This document shows positions 9,901 through 63,357 of a stretch of DNA of 64,000 nt, one piece after another. This DNA comes from Panopea generosa. Lineage: Eukaryota; Mollusca; Bivalvia; Adapedonta; Hiatellidae. The stretch is taken from contig CM055901.1 in the NCBI GenBank assembly GCA_029582155.1, positions 8,698,455-8,762,454 on the forward strand, written 5' to 3'. Each line of letters starts with the position of its first letter. Within the stretch, counting starts at the first letter, position 1. The position numbers and the translations under genes were made by a program. Under the pieces are notes generated by a model, which worked only from the letters and a program-made list of their open reading frames with translations, searched no databases and had not been told where the DNA came from.

Positions 9901-12900
9901 TCAATCAAATGCTTGCTTTTAGCTGTAACCAGACCATAAGCCAGACCATAAGCTCCAGTGAATGGATCGTAAAAAAAACATATAACATTCTTTAAAAAAA
10001 GTAAATTCATGTAAAAGAACAAGTAAGTAAAATATGGGTACTGTTCGGAACACTAAACAGTTTTAAAACTCATTTGATAAATATGACATACAGAACAATC
10101 CACAGAGAATCTAGGTGTTCAATCCAGACAAGCATGGGAAACTGACTCATTGGTCATGTGAATTGTCTGATTTGTTATCATCAGTGACTGAGCTGTCATA
10201 TTTTGATATGTATAAAGAACTGGTATTAATTCTAGCCACTAGAGTTTCAGACCCAGTAGTGAGTGATGTTTCTGAGAGGTATTGGAGTGAGCTGGGAATC
10301 AAACCCTTAACCTCTGGAGTAAGCATCCAACACTCTATCCACTACACTACTGCCCTGACTTTTTTTTATATTTAACATCTGAAAAGGATGAACATTGTAC
10401 AAAATCATCATGTGAAGGATTATTTAAATCATCCATCCTGAATGAAACTTTCTTCCTAATAGGAATCCAATCCAGAGTATGCAATTTAGTAGAACCTGCC
10501 AATTATGCCTCTCTTCTCCCATAATATATAATGATTCTAATTACAGCAAAAGGTTGGTGAATTAAATCTTTTATGATCAGTGTTGCATTCAATAAATGGA
10601 AAATATATTTTCTATCATTTCCATTTTTTTTCTTTGATGTTGTCCTACTTTCTCAAACGGAACATTCCATTTTACAAAGAATGTCATTACCAACGGTAAA
10701 TGTTGATCTACTTCCTCAGCCAACGCAATCACTATAGGAACAAAAATGTAGAACAAAATCTAAGCCGGTTACAAGTTACATGGAATTTTTCTACTGGCGT
10801 AGAAAATCTCACACAACCAACCTATGCATCGTTTTTCAGACCAATTTAAAATCAAAATGCAGGCTAATTATACAAGCTCAATAATTCAATTAAAACAAAT
10901 AAAAATGTTATTGGGAAACTGCATTTTCAATTAAATGTTTGCCATGATAATGGAATGTGATGAAGAAAGTGTCAGGTCTAATTTATATCTTACCTCGTAA
11001 TGTTCATATTCATCAACATCAAATGTGTCGAAATTAAAAAACCCGTTGGCTAATGCCTGAAATAGAAAATTAATGTTTCAAAGTCATTTCATCAGTTAAT
11101 CTACCTTTTAAAGTATTTTTGAATCAATTTATCTTGGTGTAATGCTTCACTGAATTTTCAATGATCCATTATTTTATTTTTATCATACAGAAAGCACATT
11201 TCAATACAAAAAACACAATTTATATACATCATATTTATTACACATTTATTGTGCAATGTTGGTTATCAGTTCGAAGATCACACGGTAATTTGAAGATGGC
11301 ATTTTGGCGTTTTAATACATTAATTTACCTCAGAAGTCATTCAATATTTAGCCAAATAGGCCATTCTTAAAGAATTATGTGTTTGCCGTGCTCCTACCTA
11401 CACACTGAAAATGCAACCATTTCTATTGAATTATGATTTACTAAAAAAAATTGTTATATGATCTGTCCTTATTTTATTTAAAACGACAAATAAAATTAAT
11501 ATCTAGTAAAAAAATGTATGATATCCACCCACCAGAATAAAGTTGAGTTGAGCCACACAGCAAACAAACATGCTCTGTAAAGATTGCTGAATGTTTTGTT
11601 TTTTTGTGTTTTTTTTATATAAAAAAAAATTCATTAAACAAATATTCAGATCTAAACGTATTTAAAGGCGTCAATTGAATTTAAGGATCATTACAGCAAT
11701 GTGAAATAACAAATAGCAATGTTTTTGTATTAAACTTATTTACTTTACATCAAAGTTCCTACAAGTTCTTACAACCGTGACAAATTACATTCAGTCTTCC
11801 TGAGCAGAATCAGTACTAAGTATATGCTGATAAAGTGTCTAAGTCAACGACACCACACACATAACTTTGGCGTAGGATCAAACCTGCGATTCACAGATCT
11901 AAGGTCCGTTGCTTTACCACTGGACCACACGCTCCATATAGCAAAATCACATGGTACAATGGGATATATAGGACAAGCAATATTTGTTTTTTTTCCATCA
12001 AACACCTCGAGTAATAAAATGTTCATTACAAGTGAAAACTACTTAATCTTCCAGTATCTTGAGGTGTTTAACACATACTGATGACATTCTAATGACTTTA
12101 ACATGCACTGTGAGATACTGCTTTACTTAATATGCATCAAAGATACACAAACTGTGCCATATAGCCTGGAGGCATTGCCAGGTAAACATCCCACCTGATT
12201 GCTGTATGAACTTACTTTATTTAGACCATGCAAACAGTCTAACAATGTGAGGTTATATGTACAGGCACCAAATGAAGCATCCCTGAAAATAGAAGAAGAA
12301 AAATAATTGAAAGTTTTAACTGTAGACAGCTGATGTAATTATAAATAGCAATATACATGAACATTGTACCTTATTAAGAATATACTGGGGATCTTACTGG
12401 CAGGTCTGAGACTTTCCAGCAAAACTTTTGAAAGGTCCATAGACAATTTAGAAAGGTCTGATGCTTAAAGATAAAATTCGCATTGTGTATTTCATATTTG
12501 ATAGGTGCTGTTATTGTCTTACGGCCTGTAAATGACATCAACTTAGTCAATGTTTTTATCAATGGAGAGTCAAAAATGGGCTGATAGCTAGTTGGAGGGC
12601 CAATGATTAATCATACCAATGGACTAAACTCAAGCAAAATTACAAGGGTCTGAAAGGACTTCTTACTTCCACTTTTTTAACCAATAATGTACCATAGTTT
12701 TTAAATTTATGGATGATAATTTGAAACTGCAGTTAAGAGGCATGAAGGTACAATACAGGTTGTTTACATGTATGGCATTCGGTTTTATATCTGTGATTGA
12801 ACCCAAAACCTCTGGTATGAGCTGCCAACCTTTCCACTATGCCACTACAACAATATATTTTTTTGTCTTCCAACACAGATTTATTTTAAAGGGAATTTAT

Positions 12901-25250: not shown

Positions 25251-28200
25251 TAAATTCTTTAAGAAGGTAACTCAATCAATTACAATATTAACTTTTCTTC
25301 CTTGAGGCCAGCAACAGAGAAAATCAAGGTTTATATTATCAAAAACATTGAATTATACTTAATAAACTTACAATCATACAATTATTTCCAAGACATCCAT
25401 GATGTACAATGTTATGACAAATACATAACACAGATAATTATGATATGTTTTATAGAAATATTGAAAATGTTAGTCAACCACTGTATCAGTTAGAATTCTT
25501 AAGAGAAAACTTTGCAAAAAAATGTATTTTTGAATTCTTTGATTCTTTACCTGTACACATGGAGTTATAGAGTTCCTCAAGAGAACTGCAGAACAGTGAA
25601 GGCTTTGTTTGTCTAATCTACATTTGGGAACAACTATATAGTCATTTGCACAAGATCTCAATTTATAAAATTTAAACTCTTGAAAGAAAGATAAAAGATA
25701 ATCCGGAGCAAGCTTAAAAATTTGTATTGCTTTAGGAAAATGTAGGCTATTCGTTCTGCAATATTAAACCATTTAAGCTCCTGGAACAATGATTCAGATG
25801 GAGAACCATATGACATAATATATTAACCCTTTACTCCATAGATACGCGTTTTCCCGCACCAATCACAGGAGGCCTTTGAAAACAGTGCAGGAAGAGTTCA
25901 GATTGCACTGTTTTCCACTCTGTCAGTTAATATAAACATAATTCACCCATTGCTAATATGTGGTGAATTAATGCTTTCAATATTAGAGGTGTCCAAAGGC
26001 GTTTATATGAAGTAAAGGGTTAAGGATGATTTTAGCCGCTTTCTTTTGGATTTTTCTAACCTGAGCAGTTTATAGGCCAATCAATTTGCCTTCACTGCCC
26101 ACCAAGATAAGTCCCCGTGGGCACAATGCAACTCAGCATACATTTGTCTTGCTTTATATATTATATATAAACTTGCTTTGATCTTATTGACCAATCATTA
26201 TCTTAAGAAACTTGACAGACAGAATGAATTATTTTAGTAAACAAATGGTTTAGTGTTGACACATATAAATTGCTTTGTAATGAGACCATTTACAATACCT
26301 CCGGTAATCATTTAAAGTAATAATTGGCACACTTCAAACTTTGTTATTCATTTGTAAAATTTATGTCAAGTACATGTAACTACATTTTGCAAAATATTAA
26401 TGACTGATTTTATGGCCATTTTAACACAATTATAGGACATCTGGCCTTATTGAGCGATGAGACATCTAGCAAAACCAATGATAAAGTTTTTTTGGTCTAA
26501 GCTGGTCTCGGTCACACAATCTCAGAAGTGATACGTATGCGTAACAGCATCTTGGACCATTCTGCAACGGATGTCCTACATAATAACAATTGTTAACATA
26601 GTACATACATGTATTTGACAATTGACAGAGGATCACAAAGCTAAATAAGTGTGCAGTAAGTCATTATAGGAGTACTATATAGATATAATTTGTTGTTATA
26701 CACAGAATGAAGCAATTTCGTAAATGAACAGAATACTTACAGCATAACTGGCTATTAAAAATGCAGCATTAGCTCTTTTTCTGGCGTCAAAACTTGTGTA
26801 ATGAACAATTCTCTTCTTTGCCAGTGAAAATGACTGAAAAAAATAAAGACAATTTATACAATCATGTTCATAGGCATTTGTGTTGTGTGATTTTATAATC
26901 AAATATATCATTGGTGGGGGAAGGACCTAGTGATAAAGCTAAGTAAAATCACTGGCCTTCGGAATATAACCAGCAAAATAAGTAACTGGAACGGCCTTGA
27001 CTCAACCCGCAACCTAAGTGTTGAGAAATTGGCCACAGAGGACAATTCTTGGAAATGGAAAATGGGTCCTCAAGAAGGAAACTCTTAAAGTTACACTACA
27101 ACAACCATGTAATATTTCATATAGATCAATCAACAAATAACCTACTGTCAAGACTAGAAATCAGTAATGGATGGAATAATTTCTCAATTCAGTAATTACC
27201 GCAGTAGCAACATCATGCCGCTGTATTTCCACAACATTTAACTGCCAATGCTTTCCTTGTAATAATCCTTTAACATCCTTTAAACCTGACATAATTCGTT
27301 TATAATGACTTTGGCTGCGAGTCTACCTATCAATGCCCCGCAGAAACATTTCTTCCTATCTGTAGTTGAAGAACCTTGCTGACAACTGTGAAACAGTTGG
27401 AGACTATAAAGTGTGTGGGGTGGCACAGTCTTGTTTAATACGTAATTTATTAAACAGAGACCCATATTTTGCTACTTCCCGATTGAAAAATCATTTTTTT
27501 ACCCAATTGAGGCCCCCCAATAAGTGGGAATAAAATCAGAATTTTCTAACATTTAAACCCAACTGGATATGGAGAATTATTGTAATATTCGATAAATAAT
27601 GGTTAGAACTTGATCTTAACAGTGTTACGCTGTATTTTCCAGTTCGCTCAATTTCCACTCAATCAAACCATTTTTCCTTAGTCCCAAAGGCTTTGGCTTC
27701 TTCCTAATTTTCAGGAAAGGAGTTCTAAATTTATATTTATAAATAGCCTCTATGAATGTTTTAACATTATAAAATTGAAGTTTGTGTTTATATTTAACAT
27801 ACTACTGCATATATATCAACATAACGAGACCCCACTTTCCTATGGTTTTTTATATATTTCATGTGCATTTATTTTCAGCACATCAATTATACAAACATGT
27901 ATAGTGTACCCATTGACTATTTTTATGTGAAGCACAGCCCTCATATTTGGCAGAGTGGCACATGTGCCACTTGTGACTTTGCCTATGAGCGCACTTGAAT
28001 CCATCTCTTATTGGTAATCACATTCAGAGGGTTCATTTCCTGGACCATTTAAAATATATGTGATAAAATGTCAACAAAATTTGAAAAGATCTGCTATTTG
28101 ATTGGTTAAAACAGAAGGGCAATCACTTAGTAGCTGATTTAAACTACTGTTATACTATTTAAAAATAACAGCAACAATTGAAACATGTCCTAACTACTGA

Positions 28201-42365: not shown

Positions 42366-43204
42366 TGAGTTCAAAAAGTGCCAAAATAAAATGTTTGCTT
42401 ACCAAAGAAAGAGAAGTACAGATCTATATGTAATAAAATGTAGGTATCTTAAGTCAAAAGCAACTCGCTCCATGTCCTCAGTAGTGTATGTACACGTGGA
42501 GCTACATAGAACGAGGTACATACTTTACTCGCTCCACGTCCTGAATATTGTATGATACGTGGAGCTACATAGAATGAGGTACATACTTTATTCGCTCCAT
42601 ATCCGCAGTAGTGTATGTACACATAGAACTACATGGACTGGGGTATACTTTACTCGCTCCGTGTCCTGACTATTGTATGTACACATGGTGCTACATTATC
42701 TGAGGTATACTTTACTCGCTCCATGTCATCAGTATTGTATGTACACATGAAGCTACATGGACTGAGGTATACTTTACTCGCTCTATGTCATCAGTATTAT
42801 ATGTATATATGTAGCTACATGAATGGACCGACGTATACTTTATTCGTTCCATGTCATCAGTATTATATGTACACATGAAGCTACATGGACTGAGGTATAC
42901 TTTACTCGCTCCGTGTCCTTAGTATTGTATGTACACATGAAGCTACATGGACTGAGGTATACTTTACTCGCTCCATGTCATCAGTATTGTATGTATACAT
43001 GCAGCTACATGGTCTGAGGTATACTTTATTCGCTCCATGTCATCAGTATTGTATGCATACATGCAGCTACATGGACTGAGGTATACTTTATTCGCTCCAT
43101 GTCATCAGTATTGTATGTATACATGCAGCTACATGGACTGAGGTATACTTTATTCGCTTCATGTCATCAGTATTGTATGTACACATGAAGCTACATGGAC
43201 TGAG

Positions 43205-44134
43205 GTATACTTTACTCGCTCCATGTCATTAGTATTGTATGTATACATGCAGCTACATGGACTGAGGTATACTTTATTCGCTCCATGTCATCAGTATTGT
43301 ATGTATACATGAAGCTACATGGACTGAGGTATACTTTATTCGCTCCATGTCATCAGTATTGTATGTACACATGAAGCTACATGGACTGAGGTATACTTTA
43401 CTCGCTCCATGTCATCAGTATTGTATGTATACATGCAGCTACATGGACTGAGGTATACTTTATTCGTTCCATGTCATCAGTATTGTATGTATACATGCAG
43501 CTACATGGACTGAGGTATACTTTACTCGCTCCATGTCATCAGTATTGTATGTACACATGAAGCTACATGGACTGAGGTATACTTTACTCGCTCCATGTCA
43601 TCAGTATTGTATGTATACATGCAGCTACATGGACTGAGGTATACTTTATTCGCTCCATGTCATCAGTATTGTATGTATACATGAAACTACACGGACTGAG
43701 GTATACTTTATTCGCTCCATGTCATCAGTATTGTATGTACACATGAAGCTACATGGACTGAGGTATACTTTACTTGCTCCATGTCATCAGTATTGTATGT
43801 ATACATGCAGCTACATGGACTGAGGTATACTTTATTCGCTCCATGTCATCAGTATTGTATGTATACATGAAGCTACATGGACTGAGGTATACTTTATTCG
43901 CTCCATGTCATCAGTATTGTATGTACACATGAAGCTACATGGACTGAGGTATACTTTACTCGCTCCATGTCATCAGTATTGTATGTATACATGCAGCTAC
44001 ATGGACTGAGGTATACTTTATTCGCTCCATGTCATCAGTATTGTATGTATACATGAAGCTACATGGACTGAGGTATACTTTATTCGCTCCATGTCATCAG
44101 TATTGTATGTACACATGAAGCTACATGGACTGAG
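43205..44134. repeat. 186-bp trimeric higher-order repeat in the 62-bp array
   Basis: Units follow the order A ('ttactcg', 'tatacatgcag'), B ('ttattcg', 'tatacatgaag'), C ('ttattcg', 'tacacatgaag') five times, starting at 43205, 43391, 43577, 43763 and 43949. The second trimer has small deviations in B and C. Confidence 0.85.
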
Positions 44135-47100
44135 GTATACTTTACTCGCTCCATGTCATCAGTATTGTATGTATACATGCAGCTACATGGACTGAGTATA
44201 CTTTACTCGCTCCATGTCATCAGTATTGTATGTATACATGCAGCTACATGGACTGAGGTATACTTTATTCACTCCATGTCATCAGTATTGTATGTACACA
44301 TGAAGTTACATGGACTGAGGTATACTTAACTCGCTCCATGTCATCAGTATTGTATGTATACATGTAGCTACATGGACTGAAGTATACTTTATTCGCTCCA
44401 TGTCATCAGTATTATATGTATAGATGTAGCTACATGAATGGACCGACGTATACTTTATTCGTTCCATGTCATCAGTATTATATGTGCACATGGAACTACA
44501 TGGACTGAGGTATACTTTACTCGCTCCATGTCCTGAGTATTTTATGTACACGTGAAGTTACATGGACTGAGGTATACTTTACTCGCTCCGTGTCCTCTGT
44601 GTTGTAAGTACAAGTCGAGCTACATGGACTGAGGAATATTTTACTCACTCCATGTTCTCAGTATTATATGTACACTTGAAACTACATGGACTGAGGTATA
44701 CTTTACTCGCTCCGTGCCCTCAGTATTGGATGTACACATAGAGCTACATGGACTGAGGTATACTTTACTCGCTCAATGTCATCAGTATTGTATGTACACA
44801 TGAAGTTACATGGACTGATGTATACCATACTCGCTCAGTGTCCTTAGTATTGTATGTACACGTGGAACTACCGGGACTGATGTATACTTTACTCGCTCCA
44901 TGTCATCAGTATTGTATGTACACATGAAGCTACAGGGACTGAGCTATACTTTACACGCTCCCTGTCCTCAGTATTATGTGTACACATGGAATTACATGGA
45001 CTGAAGAATAGTTCATTCGCTTCATGTCATTAGTATTATATGTACACATGGGACTACATGGACTGAGGTATACTTAACTTGCTCTATGCCTTAAATATTG
45101 TATGTACACATGAAGCTACATGGTCTGAGGTATACTTTACTTGCTCCTTGTCCTCAGTATTGTTTCTACACACGAAGCTACATGGGCTGAGGTATACGTA
45201 ACTCACTCCATGTCTTCAGTATTGTATGTACACGTGGAGCTTCATGGGCTGAGGTATACTCTACTCGCTCCATGTCATAAGTATTGTATGTACACATGAA
45301 GCTACATGAGCTGAGGTATACTTTACTCGCTCCATGTCCTGAGTATTGTATGTACACATGGAGCTACATGGGCTGAGGTATACTTTACTCACTCCATGCC
45401 CTCAGTGGCCTATGTACAGATAGGGCTACATGGACTGAGATGTACTTTACTTGCTCCATGTCTTCAGTGTTGTATGTACACATGAAGCTACATGGACTGA
45501 GGTATATTTTACTCTCACTTTGTCATCAGTGTTGCATGTGCACATGGAGCTACATTGACTGAGGTATACTTTATTCGCTCCATGTCCTCAGTGTTTTATG
45601 TACACATGAAGCTACATAGACTGAGGTATACCATACTCACTCCATATCCCCAGTGTTGTATGTACACACTGAGATAAATAGACTAAGGTAAACTTTACTC
45701 GCTCCATCTCATCACCATTGTATGTACACATGAAGCTACATGGACTGAGGAATACTTTACTTGCTCCATGTCATCAGTATTGTATGTATGGACTGAGGTA
45801 TACTTTACATGCTCTGTGTCCTTAGTATTCTATGTACACGTGGAGCTACATGGGCTGAGGTATACTTTAATTGCTCCATGACATCACTATTGTATGTACA
45901 CATGAAGTTACATGGACTGAGGAATACTTTACCTGCTCCATGTCATCAGTATTGTATGTATGGACTGAGGTATACTTTACATGCTCTGTGTCCGTAGCAT
46001 TCTATGCACACGTGGAGCTACATGGGCTGAGGTATACTTTACTCACTCCATGTCCTCAGCATTGGATGTACACATGGAGCTACATGGACTGAGGTTTACC
46101 TTACTCACTCCATGTCATTAGTATTATATGTACACATGGAACTACATGGACTTGGGTATACTTAACTCGCTCCATGTCATCAGTATTGTATGTACTGATG
46201 AAGCTACATGGACTGAGGTTTACTTTACTCGCTCCGTGTCCTCAGTATTATATGTACACATGGAACTATATGGACTGAGGTATTCTTTACTCGCTTTGTG
46301 TCCTCAGTATTATTTGTATTCGTGGAGCTACATGGACTGAGGTGTACTGCATCGCTCAATGTCGTTAGTATTGTATGTACACATGAAGCTACATGGACTG
46401 AGGTATATTTTACTCGCTCCGTGTCCTCAGTATTGTATGTACACGTAGAGCTACATAGGCGGAGGTATACTTTACTCACTCCATGTCCTTAGTATTGTAT
46501 GTACACGTGGAGCTACATAGGCGGAGGTATACTTTACTCACTCCATGTCCTTAGTATTGAATGTACACGTGGGGATACATGGGTTGAGCTATACTTTACT
46601 CGCTCCATGTCATCAGTATTGTATTTACACATGAAGCTACATGGACTGAGGTATACTTTACTCGCTCCGTGTCCTCAGTATTGTATGTACGCATGAAACT
46701 ACATGGACTGAGCTATACTTTACTCACTCCATGTCATCAGTATTGTATGTACGCATGAAACTACATGGACTGAGCTATACTTTACTCGCTCCATGTCATC
46801 AGTATTGTATGTACGCATGAAACTACATGGACTGAGGTATACTTTACTCACTCCATGTCCTCAGTATTGTATGTACACGTGGAGATACATGGGCTGAGGT
46901 ATACTTTACTCGTTCTATGTCATCAGTATTGTATGTACACATGAAGTTACATGGAATGAGGTATACTTTAGTCACTCCATGTCCTCAGTGTTGTATGTAT
47001 ACATGGATCTACATGGACAGAGGTATACTTTACTCACTCCATGTCCTGAGTATTGTATGTATTCGTGGAGTTACATGAGCTGAGGTATACTTTACTCACT

Positions 47101-50100
47101 CCTTGTCCTCAGTATTGGATGTACACGTGGAGCTACATGGACTGAGGTATACTTTACTCGCTCCATATCCTCAGTATTGTATCTATACATAGATCTACAT
47201 GAACTGAGGTATATTTTACTCACTCCATGTCCTCAGTGTTGTATGTATACTTGGAGCTACATGGACTAAGGGATTTTACTCACTCCATGTCCTCAGTATT
47301 TTATGTTCACATCGAGCTACATGGTATAAGGTATACTTTACTAACTCCATATCCTCAGTGATATATGTACACATGAAGCAACATGGACTAAAGGATTTTA
47401 CTCGCTCTATGTCCTCAGTTTTGTATGCATACATGGAGCTACATGGACTAAGGTATACTTTACTCGCTCCATGTTCTCAGTCTTGTATGTATACCTAGAT
47501 CTACATGGTCTAAGGGATACTATACTCACTTCATTCCCTCAGTGTTGTATGTACACAGGTAGCTACATGGACTGAGGTATACTTTACTCACTCCATGTCC
47601 TCAGTATTGTATGTATTAATGGAGCTACATGGACTGAGGTATACTTTACTCACTCCATGTCCTAAGTGTTGTATGTACACATGAAGCTACATGGACTGAG
47701 GTATACTTTACTCATTCCATACCCTCAGTGTTGTATGTACACACAGAGCTACATGGACTGAGGTATACTTTAGTCACTCCATGTCCTCATTGTTGTATGT
47801 ATACATAGAGCTACATGGACAGAGGTATACTTTACTCGCTCCATGTCCTCAGTGTTGTATCTATACATAGATCTACATGGACTGAGGTATAGTTAACCCA
47901 CTCCGTGTCTTCAGTGTCGTATGTATACATGGAGCTACATGGACTGAGGTATAGTTTACCCACTCCGTGTCTTCAGTGTCGTATGTATACATGGAGCTAC
48001 ATGGACTGAGGTATAGTTTACCCACTCCGTGTCTTCAGTGTCGTATGTATACATGGAGCTACATGACTAAGGAATTTTACAAACTCCATGTCCTCAGTGT
48101 TTTATGTACACATTGAGCTACATGGACTAATGTATACTTTACTCACTCCATGTCCTCAGTGTTATATGTATACATAGATCTACATGGACTGAGGTATAGT
48201 TTACCCACTCCATGTCTTCAGTGTCGTATGTACACACTGAGCTACATGGATTAAGGAATTTTACTCACTCCATGTCCTCAGTGTTTTATGTACACATCGA
48301 GCTACATGGACAGAGGTATACTTTACTCGCTCCATGTCCTCAGTGTTGTATCTATACATAGATCTACATGGACTGAGGTATAGTTTACCCACTCCGTGTC
48401 TTCAGTGTCGTATGTATACATAGATCTACATGGACTGAGGTATAGTTTACCCACTCCGTGTCTTCAGTGTCGTATGTATACATGGAGCTACATGACTAAG
48501 GGATTTTACTCACTCCATGTCCTCAGTGTTTTATGTACACAACGAGATTCATGGACTGAGGTATACTTTACTCACTCCATGGCCTTAGTGTTATATGTAC
48601 ACATGAATCTACATGGACTAAGGGATTTTACTAGCTCCATGTCGTCAGTGTTGTCTGTATACATGGAGCTACATGGGCTGAGGTATATTTTACTCACTCC
48701 ATGTCCTCAGTATTGTATGTATACATAGATCTACATGGACTGAGGTATACTTTACTCGCTCCATGTCCTCAGTATTGTATGTATACATAGATCTACATGG
48801 ACTGAGGTATACTTTACTCGCTCCATGTCCTCAGTATTGTATGTATACATAGATCTACATGGACTGAGGTATAGTTTACCCACTCCATGTCTTCAGTGTC
48901 GTATGTACACGTGGAGCTTCATGGGCTGATGTATACTGTACTCGCTCCATGTCATTAGTATTGTATGTACACATGAAGCTACATTAGATGAGGTATACTT
49001 TACTCACTCCATGTCCTCAGTGTGTTATGTTCACGTGGAGCTACATGAAATGAGGTATACTTTACTCGCTCCATGTCCTCAGTATTGTATGTATACATGG
49101 AGCTACATGGACTAAGGTAAACTTTACTCGCTCCTTGTCCTCAGTGTTGTATCTATACATAGATCTACATGGACTGAGGTATATTTTACTAACTTCATGT
49201 CCTCAGTGTTTATGTATACATAGAGCTACATGGATTAAGGGATTTTACTCACTCCATGTCCTCAGTGCTTTATGTACACATCGAGCTACATGGACTAAGG
49301 TATACGTTACTCACTCCATGTCCTCAGTGTTGTATGTAGACATGGAGCTACATGGACTGAGATATACTTTACTTGCTCAATATCATCAGTGGTGTATGTA
49401 CACACGGAGCTACATGGACTGAGGTATACTTTACTTACTCCATGTCCTCAGTGTTGTATGTAGACATGGAGCTACATGGACTGAGGTATACTTTACTCAT
49501 TCCATATCCTCAGTGCTGTATGTAGACATGGAGCTACATGGACTGAGGTATACTTTACTTGCTCAATATCATCAGTAGTGTATGTACACACGGAGCTACA
49601 TTGACTGAGGTTTACTTTATTCACTCCATGTCCTCAGTTTTTTATGTACACACGGAGCTACATGGACTGAGGTATACTTTACTCACTCCATGTGCTCAGT
49701 GTTGTATGTACACATGGAGCTACATGGACTGAGGTATACTTTATGCACTCCATGTCATCAGTGGTGTATGTACAAACGGAGCTACATGGACTGAGGTATA
49801 CTTTACTCACTTCATGTCCTCAGTGTTGTATGTACACACAGAGCTACATGGAATGAGGTATACTTTACTCACTCCATGTCCTCAGTGTTGTATGTACACA
49901 CGGAGCTACATGGACTGAGGTATACTTTACTCACTTCATGTCCTCAGTGTTGTATGTACACATGAAGTAAAATGGACTGAGGTATACTTTACTCACTCCA
50001 TGTCCTCAGTGTTGTATGTACACATGAAGTAAAATGGACTGAGGTATACTTTACTCACTTCATGTCCTCAGTGTTGTATGTACACATGAAGTAAAATGGA

Positions 50101-50351
50101 CTTAGGTATACTTTACTCACTCCATGTCCCCTGTGTTGTTTGTAAACATGGAGCTACATGGACTGAGGTACACTTAACTCACTCTATGTCCTCAGTGTTA
50201 TATGTACACATGAAGTTACATGGACTAAGGGATTTTACTAGCTCCATGTCCTCTGTGTTGTCTGTATATATGGAGTTACATAGACTAAAGTATACTTTAC
50301 TAGCTCCATGTCCTCAGTGTTGTATGTATACATAAATTTACATGGACTGAG

Positions 50352-51540
50352 GTATACTTTAGTGGCTCCATGTCCTCAGTGTTGTATGTATACATGGAGC
50401 TACATGGACTGAGGTATACTTTACTAGCTCCATGTCCTCAGTGATGTATCTATACATAGATCTACATGGACTGAGGTATACTTTACTCGCTCCATGTCCT
50501 CAGTGATGTATCTATACATAGATCTACATGGACTGAGGTATATTTTACTAACTTTATGTCCTCAGTGTTGTATGTATACTTGGAGCTACATGGACTAAGG
50601 GATTTTACTCACTCCATGTCCTCAGTGTTGTATGTACACATCGAGCTACATGGACTAAGGTATACTTTACTCACTCCATGTCCTCAGTGTTGTATGTACA
50701 CATGAAGATACATGGACTGAGGCATACTTTACACACTCCATGTCCTCAGTGTTGTATGTACACATGGAGTTACATGGACTGAGGTATACTTTACTCACAC
50801 CATGTCCTCAGTGTTGTATGTACACACGGAGCTACATGGATTGAGGTATACTTTACTCACTCTATGTGCTCAGTGTTGTATGTACACACGGAGCTACATG
50901 GACTGAGATATACTTTACTCACTCCATGTCCTCAGTGTTGTATGTACACACGGAGCTACATGGAATGAGGTATACTTTACTCACTCCATGTCCTCAGTGT
51001 TGTATGTACTCATGAAGTAACATGGAATGAGGTATACTTGACTCACTCCATGTCCTCAGTGTGGTATGTACACATGGAGCTAGATGGCCTGAGGTATACT
51101 TTACTCACTCCATGTCCCAAGTGTTGTATGTAAACATGGAGATACATGGACTGAGGTATACTTTAGTGGCTCCTTGTCCTCAGTGTTGTATGTATACATG
51201 GAGCTACATGGACTGAGGTATACTTTACTAGCTCCATGTCCTCAGTGATGTATCTATTCATAGATCTACATGGACTGAGGTATACTTTACTCGCTCCATG
51301 TCCTCAGTGATGTATCTATACATAGATCTACATGGACTGAGGTATATTTTACTAACTTTATGTCCTCAGTGTTGTATGTATACTTGGAGCTACATGGACT
51401 AAGGGATTTTACTCACTCCATGTCCTCAGTGTTGTATGTACACATCGAGCTACATGGACTAAGGTATACTTTACTCACTCCATGTCCTCAGTGTTGTATG
51501 TACACATGAAGATACATGGACTGAGGTATACTTTACTCGC
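50352..51540. repeat. About 370-bp block duplicated within the array
   Basis: The series of variant units beginning 'tttagtggctcc' at 50358, with the odd variants 'cagtgatgtatctatacata' and 'ctaactttatgtcctcagtg', recurs at 51162 in the same order, 804 bp away. A second block beginning 'tccgtgtcctgagtattgta' recurs from 51541 to 51787. Confidence 0.85.
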
Positions 51541-53438
51541 TCCGTGTCCTGAGTATTGTATGTATACTTGGAGGTACATGGACTAAGGGATTTTACTCAC
51601 TCCATGTCCTCAGTGTTGTATGTACACATCAAGCTACATGGACTAAGGTATACTTTACTTACTCCATGTCCTCAGTGTTGTTTGTACACATGAAGATACA
51701 TGGACTGAGGCATACTTTACACACTCCATGTCCTCAGTGTTGTATGTACACATGGAGCTACATGGACTGAGGTATACTTTACTCGCTCCGTGTCCTGAGT
51801 ATTGTATGTATACTTGGAGGTACATGGACTAAGGGATTTTACTCACTCCATGTCCTCAGTGTTGTATGTACACATCAAGCTACATGGACTAAGGTATACT
51901 TTACTTACTCCATGTCCTCAGTGTTGTTTGTACACATGAAGATACATGGACTGAGGCATACTTTACACACTCCATGTCCTCAGTGTTGTATGTACACACG
52001 GAGCTACATGGATTGAGGTATACTTAACTCACTCCTTGTCCTCAGTGTTGTATATACACTTGGAGCTACATGGACTGAGGTATACTTTACTCACTCCTTG
52101 TCCTCAGTGTTGTATATATACTTGGAGCTACATGGACTGAGGCAAACTTTACTCGCTCCGTGTCCTGAGTATTGTATGTACATATGGAGCTACATGGACT
52201 GAAGTATACTTTACTCACTCCATGTCCTCAGTGTTTATGTACATTTGGAGCTACATGGACTGAGGTATACTTTACACGCTCCGTGTCCTGAGTATTGTAT
52301 GTACACATGGAGCTACATGGACTGAGGTATACTTTACTCACTCCATGTCCTCAGTGTTGTATGTACACTTGGAGCTACATGGACTGAGGTATACTTTACT
52401 CGCTCCGTGTCCTGAGTATTGTATGTACATATGGAGCTACATGGACTGAAGTATACTTTACTCACTCCATGTCCTCAGTGTTGTATGTACATTTGGAGCT
52501 ACATGGACTGAGGAATACTTTACTCGCTCCGTGTCCTGAGTATTGTATGTTCATTTGGAGCTACATGGACTGAAGTATACTTTACTCACTCAATGTCCTC
52601 AGTGTTGTATGTACATTTGGAGCTACATGGACTGAGATATACTTTACTCACTCCATGTCCTTAGTGTTGTATGTACACACAGAGCTACATGGACTGAAGT
52701 ATACTTTACTCGCTCCATGTCCTCGGTGTTGTATGTACACACAGAGCTACATGGACTGAGGTATACTTTACTCACTCCATGTCCTCAGTGTTGTATGTAC
52801 ATTTGGAGCTATATGGACTGAGGTATACTTTACTCACTCCATGCCCTCAGTGTCCTATGTACAGATAGGGCTACATGGACTGAGATGTACTTTACTTGCT
52901 CCATGTCTTCAGTGTTGTATGCACACACACAGAGCTACATGGACTGAGGTATGCTTGACTCACTACATGTCCACAGTATTGTTTATACACATGGAGCTTT
53001 ATGGACTGAGGCATACTTTATTCTCTCCATACCATCAATATTGTATGTATACATGGAGCAACAAGGTCTGAAGTACACTTGACTCACCACAAGTATATGG
53101 AATGAGAATACTAAACCTGTGCTTGCGATAATGCATCTGCATATGGAATAACATGGCCTGAAGTATTGTAAACTCAACTTGTGTCATCAATGATACATGT
53201 ACACCTAGAATTACATAGGGAACAAATCTCACCACTGTATGCTGGTACAGGGACTGAGGCACAACAGATCTGCAATAGTTTGTGAAGTTACATGGACTTT
53301 GGTATATTAGATTAAATCAATGTCTGCAATAGTTCATGTGCATTTGGTGATATATGTAATAAAGTAAATATGGACGGGCAATAAACATTTTGTGTCTCCA
53401 TTGATTGTTTATATACATTATTCAATGTTTGTTACGGA

Positions 53439-57261: not shown

Positions 57262-57308
57262 AGACAAATCACGCCCAAGGTCTTCCTTGGTAGACCCAGT
57301 ACTATGCA
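57262..57308 (-). mobile_element. Left part of a SINE split by the transposon
   Basis: 'gacaaatcac', 'ggtcttccttggtagaccca' and 'gtactatgca' match 11785-11830 (family 3 SINE) in order. The match continues at 63252, on the far side of the transposon. Confidence 0.75.
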
Positions 57309-57340
57309 TATCGTCTGTTAAAAACCAGAACCTGGTATCT
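57309..57340 (+). repeat. Left terminal inverted repeat of the transposon
   Basis: It starts TATCGTCTGTTAAAAACC and runs on into AGAACCTGGTATCT. The only difference from the right copy is G at 57317. Weaker similarity ('aattttc.aaaa') continues inward. Confidence 0.9.
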
Positions 57341-58030
57341 ACAAAATTTTCGAAAATAGGGTTTTCAAACTATTAGTATGGAATTTTATAAATACATATT
57401 GTCTCAAAATTTCAGCTTTATATCTTTATTAGTTTTGAAGATATCGATTAGAGATCAAACCTTGTATCTGAAATCAATCAAATTTGCACCAGCCAAAAAC
57501 TTGTAGATCTAGATACTATGTATATTTGTCATTTATGCGACACATAGGCATGCCAGATTGTATCACCTGCGCATACAATATTTTGGTTTTTAACTAACTG
57601 GAATAATTCAGTAAAAAATTCCAAGCCAGAACATAGTATATGGCTATGACAGGTTACAGCTTTAACATGAGACAACTATAATCATCTGTACCACATTGCC
57701 AAAACCTAGTATCTGGGGATACACATGTCTACTGGTAAATAAATACAAACAATATTCAGCCATACCCTTGTATTAAACAGTACAATTGTATGGCTGTGTG
57801 AAATATAGTGACAATGCCTGCTGTAGTAAATACCAGTCCATATCATGTGTAAATGATATATTTTAAATGCAAGTATTTGGTCCAGAGAAGTGCTAATTGG
57901 TGTTGATAACCTGGTATATCAGATTTCACCTGGAATGTGTTATAATGTAGGTAATAAGCAATGGCATAAACACATTATAGAAAAATGGTTCGGTACTTTA
58001 AAAGGTGACACAAACTGATGAAATTTAAAG

Positions 58031-58297
58031 GTATGTATCTTTATGCTTAATATTAATATTATGAATAAATGCAATTAACTAAATATATTTTATAATAGAA
58101 GTAAATGTTTTAAATAAATACTAAAATTTTGATAATAATATTATATTATATAGACCAATTTACTTAATTCATAAATAATGATTGTACTAATAATAAATAA
58201 TTTTATCAGTTATTACTTTGATCATCATAACACTTTTTTTTTTCTCAAAGTAAAGTATCATGATAAACTACAAAATTATTTACAATTTTTTTTATAG
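58031..58297 (+). other. Candidate 5'UTR intron of the transposase gene
   Basis: Donor TTAAAG|GTATGT at 58030/58031 and acceptor 'aattttttttatag' ending at 58297, directly before the ATG. An in-frame stop (TAG) in the acceptor means the coding start is downstream. No in-frame upstream coding exon was found; short upstream ORFs terminate quickly. Confidence 0.5.
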
Positions 58298-61200
58298 ATG
58301 TGGTCAGACGATAATGATGACGACTTTTTTAGCTTTGCCACACAGGTAGAACAGTTATTGGTTGTAAATGAAAACATATCTGGAAATAAAATAAGTGCTG
58401 TCACAGAGGCAAATGATTGCAACAATAAAACAACAATACAACAGATATCAGATAATGTAAGTGCTATCACAGTGGATAAAGATTGCGACAATAAAACAAC
58501 AATACAAGAGATATCGGATAATGTAAGTGCTATTACAGAGGGAAAAGATTGCGACAATAAAACAACAATAAAACAGAAGTCGGATAATGTAAGTAATATC
58601 ACAGAGGAAAATGATTGCAACAATAGATCAGCAATACAACAGAAGTCAGATAGTGTAAGTGCTATCACAGAAGGAAAAGATTGCAAGAAAAAAACTACAA
58701 TACAAGATATATCGGATAATGTAAGTGCTGTCACAGAGAAAAAAGTTTGCAACAATAAAACAACAATAAAACATAAGTCGGATAATGTAAGTGCTATCAC
58801 AGAGGGAAAAGATTGCAACAAAAAAACTACAATACAAGAGATATCGGATAATGTAAGAGCCCTCACAAAGGAAAATGATTGCAACAATAAATCAACAATA
58901 CAACAGAAGTCGGATAATGTAAGTAATATCATAGAGGGAAATGATTGCAACAATAAAACTACAAGACAAGAGATATCGGATAATGTAAGTGCTGTTACGG
59001 AGGAAAATGTTTGTAACAATAAAACAACAATAACACAGAAGTTGGATAATGTAAGTGATCTCACAGATGAAATTGATTGCAACGATAAAACAACAATACA
59101 AGAGATGTTGGATAATGTAGATGCTGTCATAGAGGAAAAAGATTGCGACAATAAAACAACAGTACAAGAGATGTCGGATAATGTAGATGCTGTCATAGAG
59201 AAAAACGATACAACAACTATAAATGAGAAGTATGTAACAGAAGAAAATGAACCTGTAAGAAAGACACTGGAAAGTGAACTTGTAGCTAGAAATGATAGAA
59301 AGAAACATAAAAAGCGGAAGCGTATGCCTACTAGAAAAAAGTTAAAATATATTTCTAGTTCTGATGAGGATATACCTTTAAGTATGTATACCAGCCAGTA
59401 CATTCCACAGAATGACAGTGATGATGATGATGATGATGAAACATTTGCCCCCAATTCATATGATTTGAATTCCACAGACTCAGAATATTATTCTGACTTA
59501 TCTGACACTTCAAAACAACATAACAAAAGGGATACACTGCTTAAAAAAACATGGGATGAGACAGTGACAAATATTACAAAAATGAAAAATATTACAAAAA
59601 CTAAAAACCAGCGAAAGAAAATGCCCAGTAATGATTGTCAATTAAATAGAGATTCTACAGTTGAAGATGTAAAACGACAGAGTTATCATGCAGACATCAT
59701 GCGAAAAACACTAATAGCTGCAAATGAAGGCCGTTTAGACCAACTTTTGAATAATGAAGGACTTCAACGTGAAAAGGTTCCACCCTATGGAAACTGCTTC
59801 TTCCATGCAGCATGCCATTCAGGTCTAGTTTCGGAGTCCCATACCCAACTTCGACAATCATTATGTGCTCATTTGAAAGATAATGCGCTTGAGTACATAG
59901 GGTTTATATTGAACAAGTACAGTCCAGAAAAAGAAGAAGAATTTATCTCTGAATATTTAGTTGAAATAGAGAATCTGAAAAAAGATGGTTACTGGTCTAG
60001 CAAGGTTGCGGACCTTTTACCACTTGTGCTGGCAAACTACGCTGACTGTTCAGTTACAATTTTTACCAGTAAACCAGATCAAGAAAGGATAACGGTTATA
60101 CCTACTTTAAAAGCAAATGAAGGTGACAATGACTTAAAATTAGCGTACATCTCAGTCCCAAATATTCTTGAACATTATGATGCATGTACGGCTATTCAGG
60201 ATTGCGATTCAGTGCCATTAATTGCATTAAAAATACCAAATGCAAATGCTGAAATGCAAGATTCCAATTGTTGCAGTTCTTCTGCCGGGGTAAACCAAAC
60301 TCCAAAAAAGGCTGCCAAATTTATATCTCCAGCCAAAAAGAGATTGTTTCGAAAGAGAAAAGCTACACCCGAGAACTGGAAGAAAAATGTGAGAAAACGA
60401 TTGAAGATTTGTGGTGAGGAATATGTATCACCTTCTGGAAAAATTATACAAAAGAAGCAAGTTCAGGAATGTGACTGTTCAAAGTGTAAATATAAATGCA
60501 ATGAAAAAGTATCTTTTCAACAAAGATGTGCGATCAGAGACATTTATTACGGACTTGATTCTTATGAAAGAAAAAAAGATTACATATGTTCAAGTGTACA
60601 AGAACAAAAAACAAAGACGTATTTAGATGATAAAGGAAATAAAGTTGAAAAGAAAAAACAAGTTATGAGATTGTATACACTTGTGGTAGAGAAAGAACGA
60701 GTTAGAGTTTGCAAAAAATTCTTCTTAAAAACATTCAGCTTTAGTGAAGCAACAGTAACACATGCTCTTTCAAAAAAGGTGAGTGGCCACTTTCAAGGAA
60801 GGGATGAACGAGGAAGACATAGGGCACCGAATAAAACAAGTGAACAGAGCCTTCAAGAGATAAAAAATCACATAGAATCATTTCCCACTGTAGAACCACA
60901 CTATGTTAGGAAATCTAGTAAGAGACAGTATCTTGCCAATGATTTGAATATTAAAAGAATGTATGAAGAATATGCATCTAAATGTAAAGAAAATGGAACA
61001 GAAGCTGTAAATGAACCAATATACAGACGTGTTTTCAATGAAGAATATAACATTTCATTCCATGTACCAAAGAAAGATCAATGCAACATTTGTAATAAAT
61101 ATGACAATGCAAAGGCAGATGGGACACTTGATGATAAACAACAGGAAGAGTACACACTGCACCAATACAGAAAGGTAGTGGCCAGAGAACAAAAACACAA

Positions 61201-62131
61201 AGACAGCAACATTGCAAGGCAGTGTAGCAAAGTCCACACTTGCACATTTGATTTACAATCAGTTTTGTACACACCATGTTCACTAGTAAGTGTGATGTAT
61301 TACATGAGAAAACTTTGTTGTTACAACTTGTCTGTATATAGTGCTGGTGACAAAAAAGCATCATGTTTTCTTTGGTCAGAAATAGAAGGCAAACGTGGAT
61401 CAAATGAAATTTCAACATGTCTGAATTTATATCTTTCAAGCTTGGAATCTGCCACAGAGCGCGTAATTCTATACTCAGATGCATGCCCTGGGCAAAACAG
61501 AAATCAGATCGTGGCCACATGTCTTCTTCATTCTGTAACAACAATACCTAACATCAAAATAATTGACCATAAATTTCTTGAAAGTGGGCATACACACATG
61601 GAGTGCGACTCCATGCACGCAGCGATTGAATTTGCAAAATCAAAAACAAAAATCTTCGTGCCAAGCCAGTGGGACACTGTGATATCGATGGCACGGCGAA
61701 GAAGTCCTTACCATGTAGTGACCCTTAAACATGGTGATTTTAAAGACTTCAAGGGAGTCAAATCTAAAACACCTAGAACAACAAAAACGGAAAATGGGCA
61801 AAAACCAAAATGGACCAGCATGAAGTGGATGCGATTCATTAAAGATGACCCAGATATGTGTCATTTCAAATATGATTTTGACGAATCGGAGGAATTTCAG
61901 AAGGTGAAGATGAGTAGTAAACGGTCAACCGAACAACTACAGCCTTTGTATAAATCAAAATTACAAATATCAAGTGCAAAGAAAAAGGACTTGATTGCTT
62001 TGTGCAAGAAAGGTGTTATACCAGCCGAATTCCACGAGTACTATAAAGGGTTGTCTGCAAATCAGACTGTAAAGGAACGTCTACCGGTACCAGACAAAGA
62101 TGAAAGTGACGATGATACAGACATCGAATAA
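58298..62131 (+). CDS. OTU-domain transposase-like protein, 1,277 residues
   Basis: Intact ORF. Residues 28 to about 306 are thirteen 22-residue repeats of the form ISDNVSAITEGKDCNNKTTI. Residues 334-348 are strongly basic (RKKHKKRKRMPTRKK), a likely nuclear signal, followed by acidic SSSDED and DDDDDDE tracts. Residues about 490-640 form an OTU cysteine-protease domain: PPYGNCFFHA with Cys500, Trp566, and EHYDA with His626 and Asp628; the usual Asp three residues before Cys is Tyr497. Cys clusters lie at 725-734 and 929-932. A DDE/RNase H-like core follows, with Asp985 (TFDLQSVLY), Asp1061 (YSDACPGQNRN) and a GHTHMECDSMHAAIE block (E1102, D1104, E1111). The C-terminus is acidic. The role is probably DNA transposition; the OTU part may remove ubiquitin from host proteins (inference). 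Codon 58298 is the first in-frame ATG after a stop at 58295. Confidence 0.85.
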   Translation: MWSDDNDDDFFSFATQVEQLLVVNENISGNKISAVTEANDCNNKTTIQQISDNVSAITVDKDCDNKTTIQEISDNVSAITEGKDCDNKTTIKQKSDNVSNITEENDCNNRSAIQQKSDSVSAITEGKDCKKKTTIQDISDNVSAVTEKKVCNNKTTIKHKSDNVSAITEGKDCNKKTTIQEISDNVRALTKENDCNNKSTIQQKSDNVSNIIEGNDCNNKTTRQEISDNVSAVTEENVCNNKTTITQKLDNVSDLTDEIDCNDKTTIQEMLDNVDAVIEEKDCDNKTTVQEMSDNVDAVIEKNDTTTINEKYVTEENEPVRKTLESELVARNDRKKHKKRKRMPTRKKLKYISSSDEDIPLSMYTSQYIPQNDSDDDDDDETFAPNSYDLNSTDSEYYSDLSDTSKQHNKRDTLLKKTWDETVTNITKMKNITKTKNQRKKMPSNDCQLNRDSTVEDVKRQSYHADIMRKTLIAANEGRLDQLLNNEGLQREKVPPYGNCFFHAACHSGLVSESHTQLRQSLCAHLKDNALEYIGFILNKYSPEKEEEFISEYLVEIENLKKDGYWSSKVADLLPLVLANYADCSVTIFTSKPDQERITVIPTLKANEGDNDLKLAYISVPNILEHYDACTAIQDCDSVPLIALKIPNANAEMQDSNCCSSSAGVNQTPKKAAKFISPAKKRLFRKRKATPENWKKNVRKRLKICGEEYVSPSGKIIQKKQVQECDCSKCKYKCNEKVSFQQRCAIRDIYYGLDSYERKKDYICSSVQEQKTKTYLDDKGNKVEKKKQVMRLYTLVVEKERVRVCKKFFLKTFSFSEATVTHALSKKVSGHFQGRDERGRHRAPNKTSEQSLQEIKNHIESFPTVEPHYVRKSSKRQYLANDLNIKRMYEEYASKCKENGTEAVNEPIYRRVFNEEYNISFHVPKKDQCNICNKYDNAKADGTLDDKQQEEYTLHQYRKVVAREQKHKDSNIARQCSKVHTCTFDLQSVLYTPCSLVSVMYYMRKLCCYNLSVYSAGDKKASCFLWSEIEGKRGSNEISTCLNLYLSSLESATERVILYSDACPGQNRNQIVATCLLHSVTTIPNIKIIDHKFLESGHTHMECDSMHAAIEFAKSKTKIFVPSQWDTVISMARRRSPYHVVTLKHGDFKDFKGVKSKTPRTTKTENGQKPKWTSMKWMRFIKDDPDMCHFKYDFDESEEFQKVKMSSKRSTEQLQPLYKSKLQISSAKKKDLIALCKKGVIPAEFHEYYKGLSANQTVKERLPVPDKDESDDDTDIE

Positions 62132-62479
62132 CATTGCAACAGCATGATTATATTGATAAACATGTAATGGTAAAATACAAAGCAGTCAAAAAATCAATTA
62201 AGTGTTTAGTGTTCATGTACTTAAAAATTACTTAACTCAGTGCCTAAGTATACAAACTGTTTGGAGTTAGAAGACCGCGGAACATGATTATTATCATAAT
62301 GACTACTGATTGCAGTAGGTAGAGTATGGTATCTATATGACCACGGATTGCAAAAAGGTGCAATTGGAGGTCAGATAGAATGTTATAGTATGTAAAATGT
62401 TTGTATAATAATTTGTAATCGTTTTTTTTTTGTCATTTAAAGAAATTATGTATACATTTCGTCTTTGTAGATTCCGAGA

Positions 62480-62485
62480 AATAAA
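62480..62485 (+). terminator. Polyadenylation signal of the transposase gene (candidate)
   Basis: AATAAA about 350 bp after the stop codon, the nearest such signal on the coding strand and still inside the element. A further AATAAA lies at 62946. Confidence 0.45.
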
Positions 62486-62757
62486 ATTACATTTAGTGTG
62501 ATAAAAATCTTAATTGCATTTAAAAAGAACAATCATGATTATTACTGTCATTTACCTATCAGATAACATGTTTTGGGTCTAAAAACCTTAATATTTCAAA
62601 AACTTATATTACAACCAGAACAACGTATGACAACATACAGTATTGTGTCTTCATTTTATTAGATTTGTGTAATCAAATTGCATTGCCAAACCATTGTATC
62701 AATGTATACTCTTATATAGCAAATTAAAAATAGTACTTAACTATTGGTTTTGTTAAT

Positions 62758-62793
62758 GCCAAAATATTGTATTGTTTAATACAACATTTTGGC
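62758..62793. repeat. Palindrome in the transposon 3' region
   Basis: The arms 'gccaaaatattgtatt' and 'aatacaacattttggc' pair at 15 of 16 positions around the loop 'gttt'. It lies within the subterminal zone. Confidence 0.75.
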
Positions 62794-63219
62794 TGTCCAT
62801 TTATAAACAATTTGTTAACATGTCCTTAAAGCTTAAGACTGGTATAGTTATATACTAGGTTCTGGCATCAAATACTTTCATAAATATCCCTTATTTACAT
62901 ATGCTTAATACACGCATCTGTAGATGCCAGGGTATGGTTGGCTGAAATAAAGAACAATTTTCATTTTGCTTAAAACCAGAACCTCTTATCGGAAAATAAG
63001 AGGTTTTACCTATTCAAAAAAACTGCTATTTGACCAAATTTATCCTGCCAGAACAAAAATGGATTATTTTTTCATCATTTGCGGAACAAATCATTTGAAA
63101 TATATATATATAAATAAAGCATGTACTACTGCATCACATTGCTAAGAATTGTATGTAAATATGGATTTTTAAACATTTGCCAACGTTTTTTCGTCTTCCT
63201 GAACATTTTTGAAAATTGC

Positions 63220-63251
63220 AGATACCAGGTTCTGGTTTTTAATAGACGATA
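63220..63251 (-). repeat. Right terminal inverted repeat of the transposon
   Basis: On the plus strand it reads AGATACCAGGTTCTGG, then TTTTTAATAGACGATA, the complement of the left end with one mismatch. Confidence 0.9.
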
Positions 63252-63357
63252 TGCAGATAAAGTGTCTTGCTCTACTAACCACACAGAGCCTTAGCGGAGG
63301 ATCAAACCCACAACCCATCGATCCTGGGTCCAATGTTCTACCATCGGACCACGCAAG
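63252..63357 (-). mobile_element. Right part of the SINE split by the transposon
   Basis: 'tgcagataaagtgtcttgct', inverted B box 'aggatcaaacccacaaccca' and the tRNA-like head 'gttctaccatcggaccacgc' continue the element begun at 57262. The bases TGCA are present in both halves. Confidence 0.8.

What the first reader, a model, noticed from the sequence alone, without database searches (positions are those of the whole stretch)
57309..63251. Complete 5.9-kb transposon with an OTU-protease/transposase fusion protein
The element has everything expected of a recently active transposon: 31/32 matching inverted ends, a 4-bp TGCA duplication, an uninterrupted 1,277-codon gene, a candidate intron and a polyA signal. 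The protein joins tandem repeats, an OTU domain, Cys clusters and a DDE-like core. A deubiquitinase-like domain inside a cut-and-paste transposase is unusual and could protect the transposase or act on host silencing factors. The superfamily is not certain.
Basis: partly seen in the sequence, partly recalled or inferred. Interest (0 to 1): 0.88.

Follow-up and report, generated by a model that had tools for sequence, protein, structure and literature searches.

The report
Transposon whose transposase carries deubiquitinase domain
This is an intact 5.9-kb cut-and-paste-type DNA transposon, probably from a mollusc, whose single protein joins a ubiquitin-protease (OTU) domain to a transposase that databases still list as a domain of unknown function; OTU domains in other transposons are already known, so it is a new variant rather than a new kind of element.

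Summary
At 57309-63251 lies an element with 36-bp inverted ends (34/36), flanked by TGCA and holding one 1,277-codon ORF. It was inserted: the joined flanks align across the junction to an uninterrupted copy of the same host repeat at 11765-11928, with a single TGC(T) at the site. The arms carry nine further degenerate copies of the TIR core. The protein has an N-terminus with 66-bp in-frame repeats, an OTU fold (OTUD3, OTUD1, Otu2) and a C-terminal RNase H-fold core (Pfam DUF7869) closest to retroviral integrases and Mos1. Across 220 family members the triad is D-D-D, mostly DD42D, not DDE. The fusion is not a quirk of this copy: 52 of 53 OTU-bearing proteins in the tree share one branch, and OTU catalytic residues are kept in 51 of 55. 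Named members of that branch are molluscs, apart from two in a bacterial bin; named OTU-less relatives outside it are insects. OTU in a cut-and-paste transposase has a precedent (Ginger1, C-terminal OTU), so this is an apparently independent N-terminal variant. Superfamily assignment (Sola or other) could not be tested, and other copies in the host genome could not be searched because that tool did not complete.

The parts
57305..57308 (.). left TGCA, target-site duplication
   Evidence: Sequence; the uninterrupted repeat copy at 11765-11928 has one TATGCT at this place. Palindromic, so the exact TSD/TIR border is inferred from symmetry.
57309..57344 (+). left terminal inverted repeat, 36 bp, 34/36 to the right one
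57345..58297 (+). left arm: presumed 5' UTR and subterminal degenerate copies of ACCAGAACCTGGTATCT (starting at 57625, 57698, 57903; 3-5 mismatches)
   Evidence: 9 copies in both arms outside the TIRs against a mean of 0.29 in 300 first-order Markov simulations (maximum 4)
58031..58297 (+). candidate intron (GTATGT...TTTTTTTTATAG), acceptor abuts the ATG; splicing not shown
58298..62131 (+). transposase gene, 1,277 codons, no interruption
   Evidence: chance control; 103 homologues
58392..59216 (+). 66-bp (22-codon) in-frame tandem repeats, 12.5 copies, in the N-terminal region
59690..60217 (+). OTU domain (about aa 465-640): Cys of YGNC, His-Tyr-Asp of EHYDAC present, Asp of the usual DGNC replaced by Tyr
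60476..61162 (+). Cys/His clusters before the core: C727/C730/C734/C805 and H868-C929-C932-H955
   Evidence: conservation (188 of 210, 208 of 211, 213 of 214, 216 of 217; 217 of 217, 216 of 216, 215 of 216, 214 of 216 filled rows); zinc binding inferred
61232..61711 (+). RNase H-fold catalytic core (overlaps Pfam DUF7869), D985, D1061, D1104, DD42D
62132..63215 (+). right arm: AATAAA at 62480 and subterminal motif copies (starting at 62373, 62561, 62614, 62850, 62922, 62975; 3-5 mismatches)
63216..63251 (-). right terminal inverted repeat, 36 bp
63252..63255 (.). right TGCA, target-site duplication
11765..11928 (+). uninterrupted copy of the host repeat into which the element inserted (paralogous empty site)
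   Evidence: 68.7% over 166 columns, E 1.9e-10; score 119, maximum 29 in 200 shuffled stretches

Best explanation
An autonomous, structurally intact TIR DNA transposon (cut-and-paste type). Its one protein binds the TIR core and its degenerate subterminal copies, pairs the ends, and cuts and rejoins DNA with an RNase H-fold D-D-D active site (DD42D; Pfam DUF7869), duplicating 4 bp (TGCA) at the target. The N-terminal half carries an OTU cysteine protease, most simply gained once near the base of a mollusc-dominated branch of this transposase family and kept with its active-site Cys, His and acid. Most likely it works in cis as a deubiquitinase that keeps the transposase, or the transpososome on chromatin, free of ubiquitin, so prolonging its life. 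Shown: ends, insertion, ORF, both predicted folds, invariant residues, clustering of the fusion on one branch. Inferred: DNA binding by the motif, catalysis, deubiquitination and its target. The confidence below is for the transposon, transposase and OTU-fusion part; the cis-deubiquitinase step alone I put at about 0.4.
Against: No second copy of this element was examined: the genome search did not answer in 12 tries. The empty site is a paralogue at 69% identity with a 6-bp gap near the junction, not the orthologous site; a second, weaker relative of the repeat (1701-2000, score 40 against a background maximum of 29) spans the junction but has a 9-bp gap exactly where TGCA lies, so it does not support the TSD reading. 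In this copy the Asp of the OTU DGNC motif is Tyr, so its protease activity is doubtful; 11 of 55 filled rows have a non-Asp there, the window included. One OTU-bearing protein (P0055) falls outside the main branch and one OTU-less protein (P0018) inside; well-supported branches force at least 2 label changes, the tree needs 3, and the root is a midpoint. Five of the six rows dropped from the tree as too short were OTU-bearing. No DNA of any other family member was available to show the same ends.
Confidence: 0.8

Rival explanations
1. Same transposon, but the OTU domain acts on host proteins (histone H2A/H2B ubiquitin, PCNA, repair or silencing factors) in trans rather than protecting the transposase.
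For: Bao et al. proposed that OTU/Ulp1 domains may activate DNA repair factors during or after transposition (PMC2836005 discussion); OTU fold and profile closest to cellular OTUD3, OTUD1 and Otu2.
Against: Nothing here distinguishes substrates; a covalent fusion to the transposase suggests local or cis action but does not prove it.
Confidence: 0.35
2. The OTU domain is no longer a protease in this lineage and serves as a ubiquitin-binding or structural module.
For: Asp of DGNC is Tyr here and His, Tyr, Asn, Ser or Val in 10 other rows, among them several of the window's nearest relatives (P0001-P0004, P0006, P0049).
Against: Cys, His and the following acid are conserved in 51 of 55 rows including the window.
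Confidence: 0.25
3. A domesticated host gene flanked by chance inverted repeats.
For: Only one copy could be examined; long intact ORF.
Against: Joined flanks match an uninterrupted repeat; matching 36-bp ends plus TGCA; subterminal motif array; family members are numerous, several in one species.
Confidence: 0.03
4. A known Repbase superfamily (Sola, recalled as having 4-bp TSDs, is the first candidate) with an OTU-bearing lineage already catalogued there.
For: 4-bp TSD and RNase H-fold core; PMC10294476 curated 14 Sola2 and 8 Sola1 consensus elements in its mollusc survey (passages read).
Against: No Sola reference sequence was reachable, so neither for nor against was tested.
Confidence: 0.4

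Closest known systems
Ginger1 DNA transposons (PMC2836005)
   Same: TIR DNA transposon with 4-bp TSD whose transposase carries an OTU (or Ulp1) cysteine protease domain; integrase-type catalytic core
   Different: Ginger1: Gypsy-type integrase core, OTU at the C-terminus, TSD CCGG/CCGT, ends TGTNR. Here: DUF7869 core with D-D-D, OTU N-terminal, TSD TGCA, ends TATCGTCT
Helitron/Helentron elements with OTU or VTD domains (PMC9741609, passages read; PMC4067079, listing only)
   Same: mobile element protein with an OTU deubiquitinase-type domain in animals
   Different: rolling-circle Rep/helicase elements; here TIRs, TSD and an RNase H-fold core
Insect DUF7869 proteins (Pfam PF25273)
   Same: homologous core (best named insect protein E 6.6e-123) with the same three Asp and Cys/His clusters
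   Different: no OTU domain found in the named insect rows of the first search; annotated as a domain of unknown function
Retroviral integrases and Mos1 mariner transposase (PDB)
   Different: no sequence-level match; spacing DD42D instead of DD35E/DD34D (spacings recalled)

Membership tests
RNase H-fold (DDE/D) transposases | RNase H-like catalytic fold | tested here: met
RNase H-fold (DDE/D) transposases | three conserved acidic residues | tested here: met
   D985 216/216, D1061 213/213, D1104 213/213 filled rows of 220
RNase H-fold (DDE/D) transposases | element with TIRs and target-site duplication | tested here: met
RNase H-fold (DDE/D) transposases | DNA cleavage and strand transfer | not testable with these tools
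   needs a transposition assay
OTU cysteine proteases | OTU fold and sequence profile | tested here: met
   (E 3.4e-4, 21.6 bits against cut-off 23.3; P0002, P0008, P0034 and P0101 above it)
OTU cysteine proteases | catalytic Cys, His and acid | tested here: met
   Cys and HYD present in the window; 51 of 55 rows
OTU cysteine proteases | Asp of the DGNC motif | tested here: not met
   Tyr in the window; Asp in 44 of 55 filled rows
OTU cysteine proteases | deubiquitinase activity | not testable with these tools
   needs an assay
Ginger1 | Gypsy-type integrase core (Pfam integrase-core profile expected, as Ginger1 cores share up to 40% identity with Gypsy integrases) | tested here: not met
   Pfam scan at E up to 1 gave DUF7869 and no integrase-core family; the fold is integrase-like all the same
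Ginger1 | OTU or Ulp1 C-terminal to the core | tested here: not met
   OTU about aa 465-640, core about aa 979-1138
Ginger1 | TSD CCGG or CCGT and ends TGTNR | tested here: not met
   TSD TGCA, ends TATCGTCT (definition from PMC2836005)
Sola | 4-bp TSD (recalled) | tested here: met
   TGCA; not specific to Sola
Sola | homology to Sola1/2/3 transposases | not testable with these tools
   no reference sequences reachable; two papers recalled as defining them are not held
Helitron/Helentron | Rep and helicase domains | tested here: not met
   no such Pfam match at E up to 1

The most novel reading that the evidence does not exclude
DUF7869 is the catalytic core of an undescribed animal transposase superfamily (DD42D, HCCH cluster, 4-bp TGCA-type target), and a mollusc-centred branch of it captured an OTU deubiquitinase once and kept it active as a built-in shield of the transposase against ubiquitin-dependent destruction, independently of the OTU capture in Ginger1.
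Probability: 0.25. Interest if true: 0.75.

Novelty: new variant of a known kind. Interest (0 to 1): 0.55.

Why it matters
It gives a likely function to a large 'unknown' animal protein domain (DUF7869 as transposase core), and it adds an apparently independent instance of a transposon joining a ubiquitin protease to its recombinase, now N-terminal and conserved across a deep branch. Repeated, selected fusions of this kind would turn the old proposal that ubiquitin controls transposition into something testable with one Cys-to-Ala mutant.

Tried and rejected
Rejected: host gene flanked by chance repeats; Ginger1 (position of OTU, TSD, ends, core); Helitron. The E of MEC(D)S as third catalytic residue: E in only 104 of 213 filled rows, Pro in 93.

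Led nowhere: Pfam on the whole protein gave only two sub-threshold hits, lying mostly in the repeats, which I take for spurious (OTU and DUF7869 appear when pieces are scanned). A PDB sequence search with the single protein gave nothing useful. Viral contigs, 3 scans, no relative. Genome contigs gave one fragment at a contig start (L001), no ends. An OTU-only protein search found three members of the same family, so the donor of the OTU domain is unknown. Foldseek alone gave no E<=0.001 match for the C-terminal model. Rfam at gathering thresholds and ARAGORN listed nothing in the window. Literature: nine searches, (DUF7869: 0 papers; 25 of 28 papers listed; 10 of 29 listed). Going by the listings and by passages of four papers (PMC2836005, PMC10294476, PMC9741609, PMC4455052), none describes this fusion; the other listed papers were not opened. 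Most subscription papers and Repbase Reports are not held there.

Not done: copy number in the host genome, orthologous empty site, Sola comparison.

Full report
What is there. The element occupies 57309-63251 between two TGCA tetranucleotides. Its ends match in inverted orientation over 36 bp with two mismatches, 40 bp with 38 matches if TGCA is counted. Nine more degenerate copies (3 to 5 mismatches) of the TIR core ACCAGAACCTGGTATCT lie in the non-coding arms; 300 first-order Markov simulations of the arms gave a mean of 0.29 and a maximum of 4. Of 32 such matches in the whole window, 13 lie in the element's 2.1 kb of non-coding sequence (TIRs included) and 19 in the rest. All three left-arm copies have the orientation of the left TIR, four of the six right-arm copies that of the right TIR. 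Two of the three left-arm sites lie within 4 bp of the mirrored distance of one of those four right-arm sites (316/313, 389/385); random placement reached this in 56 of 20,000 trials, a test set up after seeing the sites. Such an array looks like transposase binding sites; binding itself is inferred.

It was inserted. Joining the flanks with one TGCA gives a sequence that aligns across the junction to window 11765-11928, 68.7% over 166 columns; in a separate scan the score was 119 against a maximum of 29 in 200 shuffled stretches. The host repeat contains a tRNA-like box (GGTTTGATCC on the other strand; my reading, ARAGORN calls no tRNA). The uninterrupted copy reads TATGCTGATAAAG where the joined flanks read TATGCAGATAAAG, so one TGC(A/T) belongs to the target and the second TGCA is a duplication. 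A 6-bp gap sits just left of the site in this alignment. Against this, a weaker relative of the repeat (1701-2000, score 40) has a 9-bp gap exactly over the TGCA. Longer duplications (TATGCA) are arithmetically possible but would make the TIRs unequal.

The gene. The ORF 58298-62131 has 1,277 codons; 50 order-2 Markov windows gave at most 217. The codon before the ATG is TAG, which is also the end of a good acceptor (TTTTTTTTATAG); a GTATGT donor lies at 58031. With or without splicing the first in-frame Met is MWSD, a start shared in form by some relatives (MWSSDWSDD in P0001, MWSEGDDD in P0020). The N-terminus holds 12.5 repeats of 66 bp in frame; at least four relatives show other tandem repeats there (P0005, P0009, P0016, P0020, which printed only a part of the 103 homologues).

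Active sites. Over all 220 proteins in hand (219 homologues, of which the second search listed only its best 120 of 229, and the window), D985 is Asp in 216 of 216 filled rows, D1061 in 213 of 213, D1104 in 213 of 213. The neighbouring E1102 is Glu in 104 and Pro in 93 of 213; E1111 is Glu in 198 of 213. D1104 is the third residue of the helix that follows strand five, which is about where the integrase Glu lies (recalled). I therefore call the triad D-D-D; the second spacing is 42 in 162 of 212 rows with all three Asp. H868, C929, C932, H955 and a Cys cluster upstream are also nearly invariant. The OTU domain keeps Cys, His and acid in 51 of 55 rows with both columns filled, out of 58 OTU-bearing; the Asp of DGNC is Asp in 44 of 55 and Tyr in the window. 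The OTU-bearing rows were found with a profile built from 52 segments picked by the Cys and His motifs, so this last count leans towards conservation.

The family. The first search gave 103 homologues. With the window, 58 of 104 carry OTU (55 by rule, 3 more flagged by the script that I counted in because their OTU scores are 178-201 bits) and 46 do not. Six rows were dropped as too short for the tree, five of them OTU-bearing. In the remaining 98, 52 of 53 OTU rows lie under one branch (SH-aLRT 96) with one OTU-less abalone protein (P0018); P0055 (OTU) lies outside. The label needs 3 changes against 32 in shuffles, and starred branches force at least 2; the root is a midpoint. One early gain with losses is the simplest reading, not proven. 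In the listing, named OTU-bearing proteins are from bivalves and gastropods (Saccostrea, Pinctada, Littorina, Batillaria, Mytilus, Mya; the Mya and Mytilus coruscus rows were among those dropped from the tree), plus two in a bin named Sedimenticola that I take for host DNA (inference); named OTU-less ones outside that branch are insects.

Comparison. OTU in a cut-and-paste transposon is known: in the table passages I saw, 7 of 16 Ginger1 families carry OTU and 8 Ulp1, at the C-terminus (PMC2836005, passages and discussion read). Helitrons carry OTU and VTD domains; that paper reports deubiquitinase activity in the VTD family and says that transposon OTU domains had not been tested (PMC9741609, passages read). 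The element here fails Ginger1 on core profile, domain order, TSD and ends. Sola could not be tested.

Mechanism. Best supported: a transposon that moves by an RNase H-fold D-D-D transposase and protects that protein, or its complex, from ubiquitin. The first half rests on anatomy and conservation, the second on the kept active site and the fusion alone. What is missing is a second copy: the genome search did not answer in 12 tries, so activity, copy number and age are open.

Noticed in passing
42463-53085: A 10.6-kb tandem array of about 62-bp units (also seen as 124 and 186 bp), roughly 85% alike, which fills a sixth of the window.
   Followed up: no
16734-17177: 47-bp tandem array (9.5 copies, 95% matches) that leaves three overlapping frames open on the minus strand.
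   Followed up: no
22688-24339 and 63290-63316: A 68-bp minisatellite whose unit contains GGGGATTCAAACTCACAACCC, close to the tRNA-like box of the repeat hit by the transposon; may be an expanded piece of a related repeat.
   Followed up: partly
15443-15773 and 25823-26004: Long exact inverted matches (up to 31 bp) about 10 kb apart, overlapping a 25-bp tandem array at 15459-15647 on the left side.
   Followed up: no
58392-59216: The in-frame 66-bp repeats of this copy are not shared as such; some relatives have their own unrelated tandem repeats at the same place in the protein (P0005, P0009, P0016, P0020), as if a repeat-prone acidic N-terminus were tolerated or wanted.
   Followed up: partly
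L001 2-445: A fragment of a DUF7869-like gene in a contig binned as a Gemmataceae bacterium, most likely eukaryotic contamination of the bin.
   Followed up: partly
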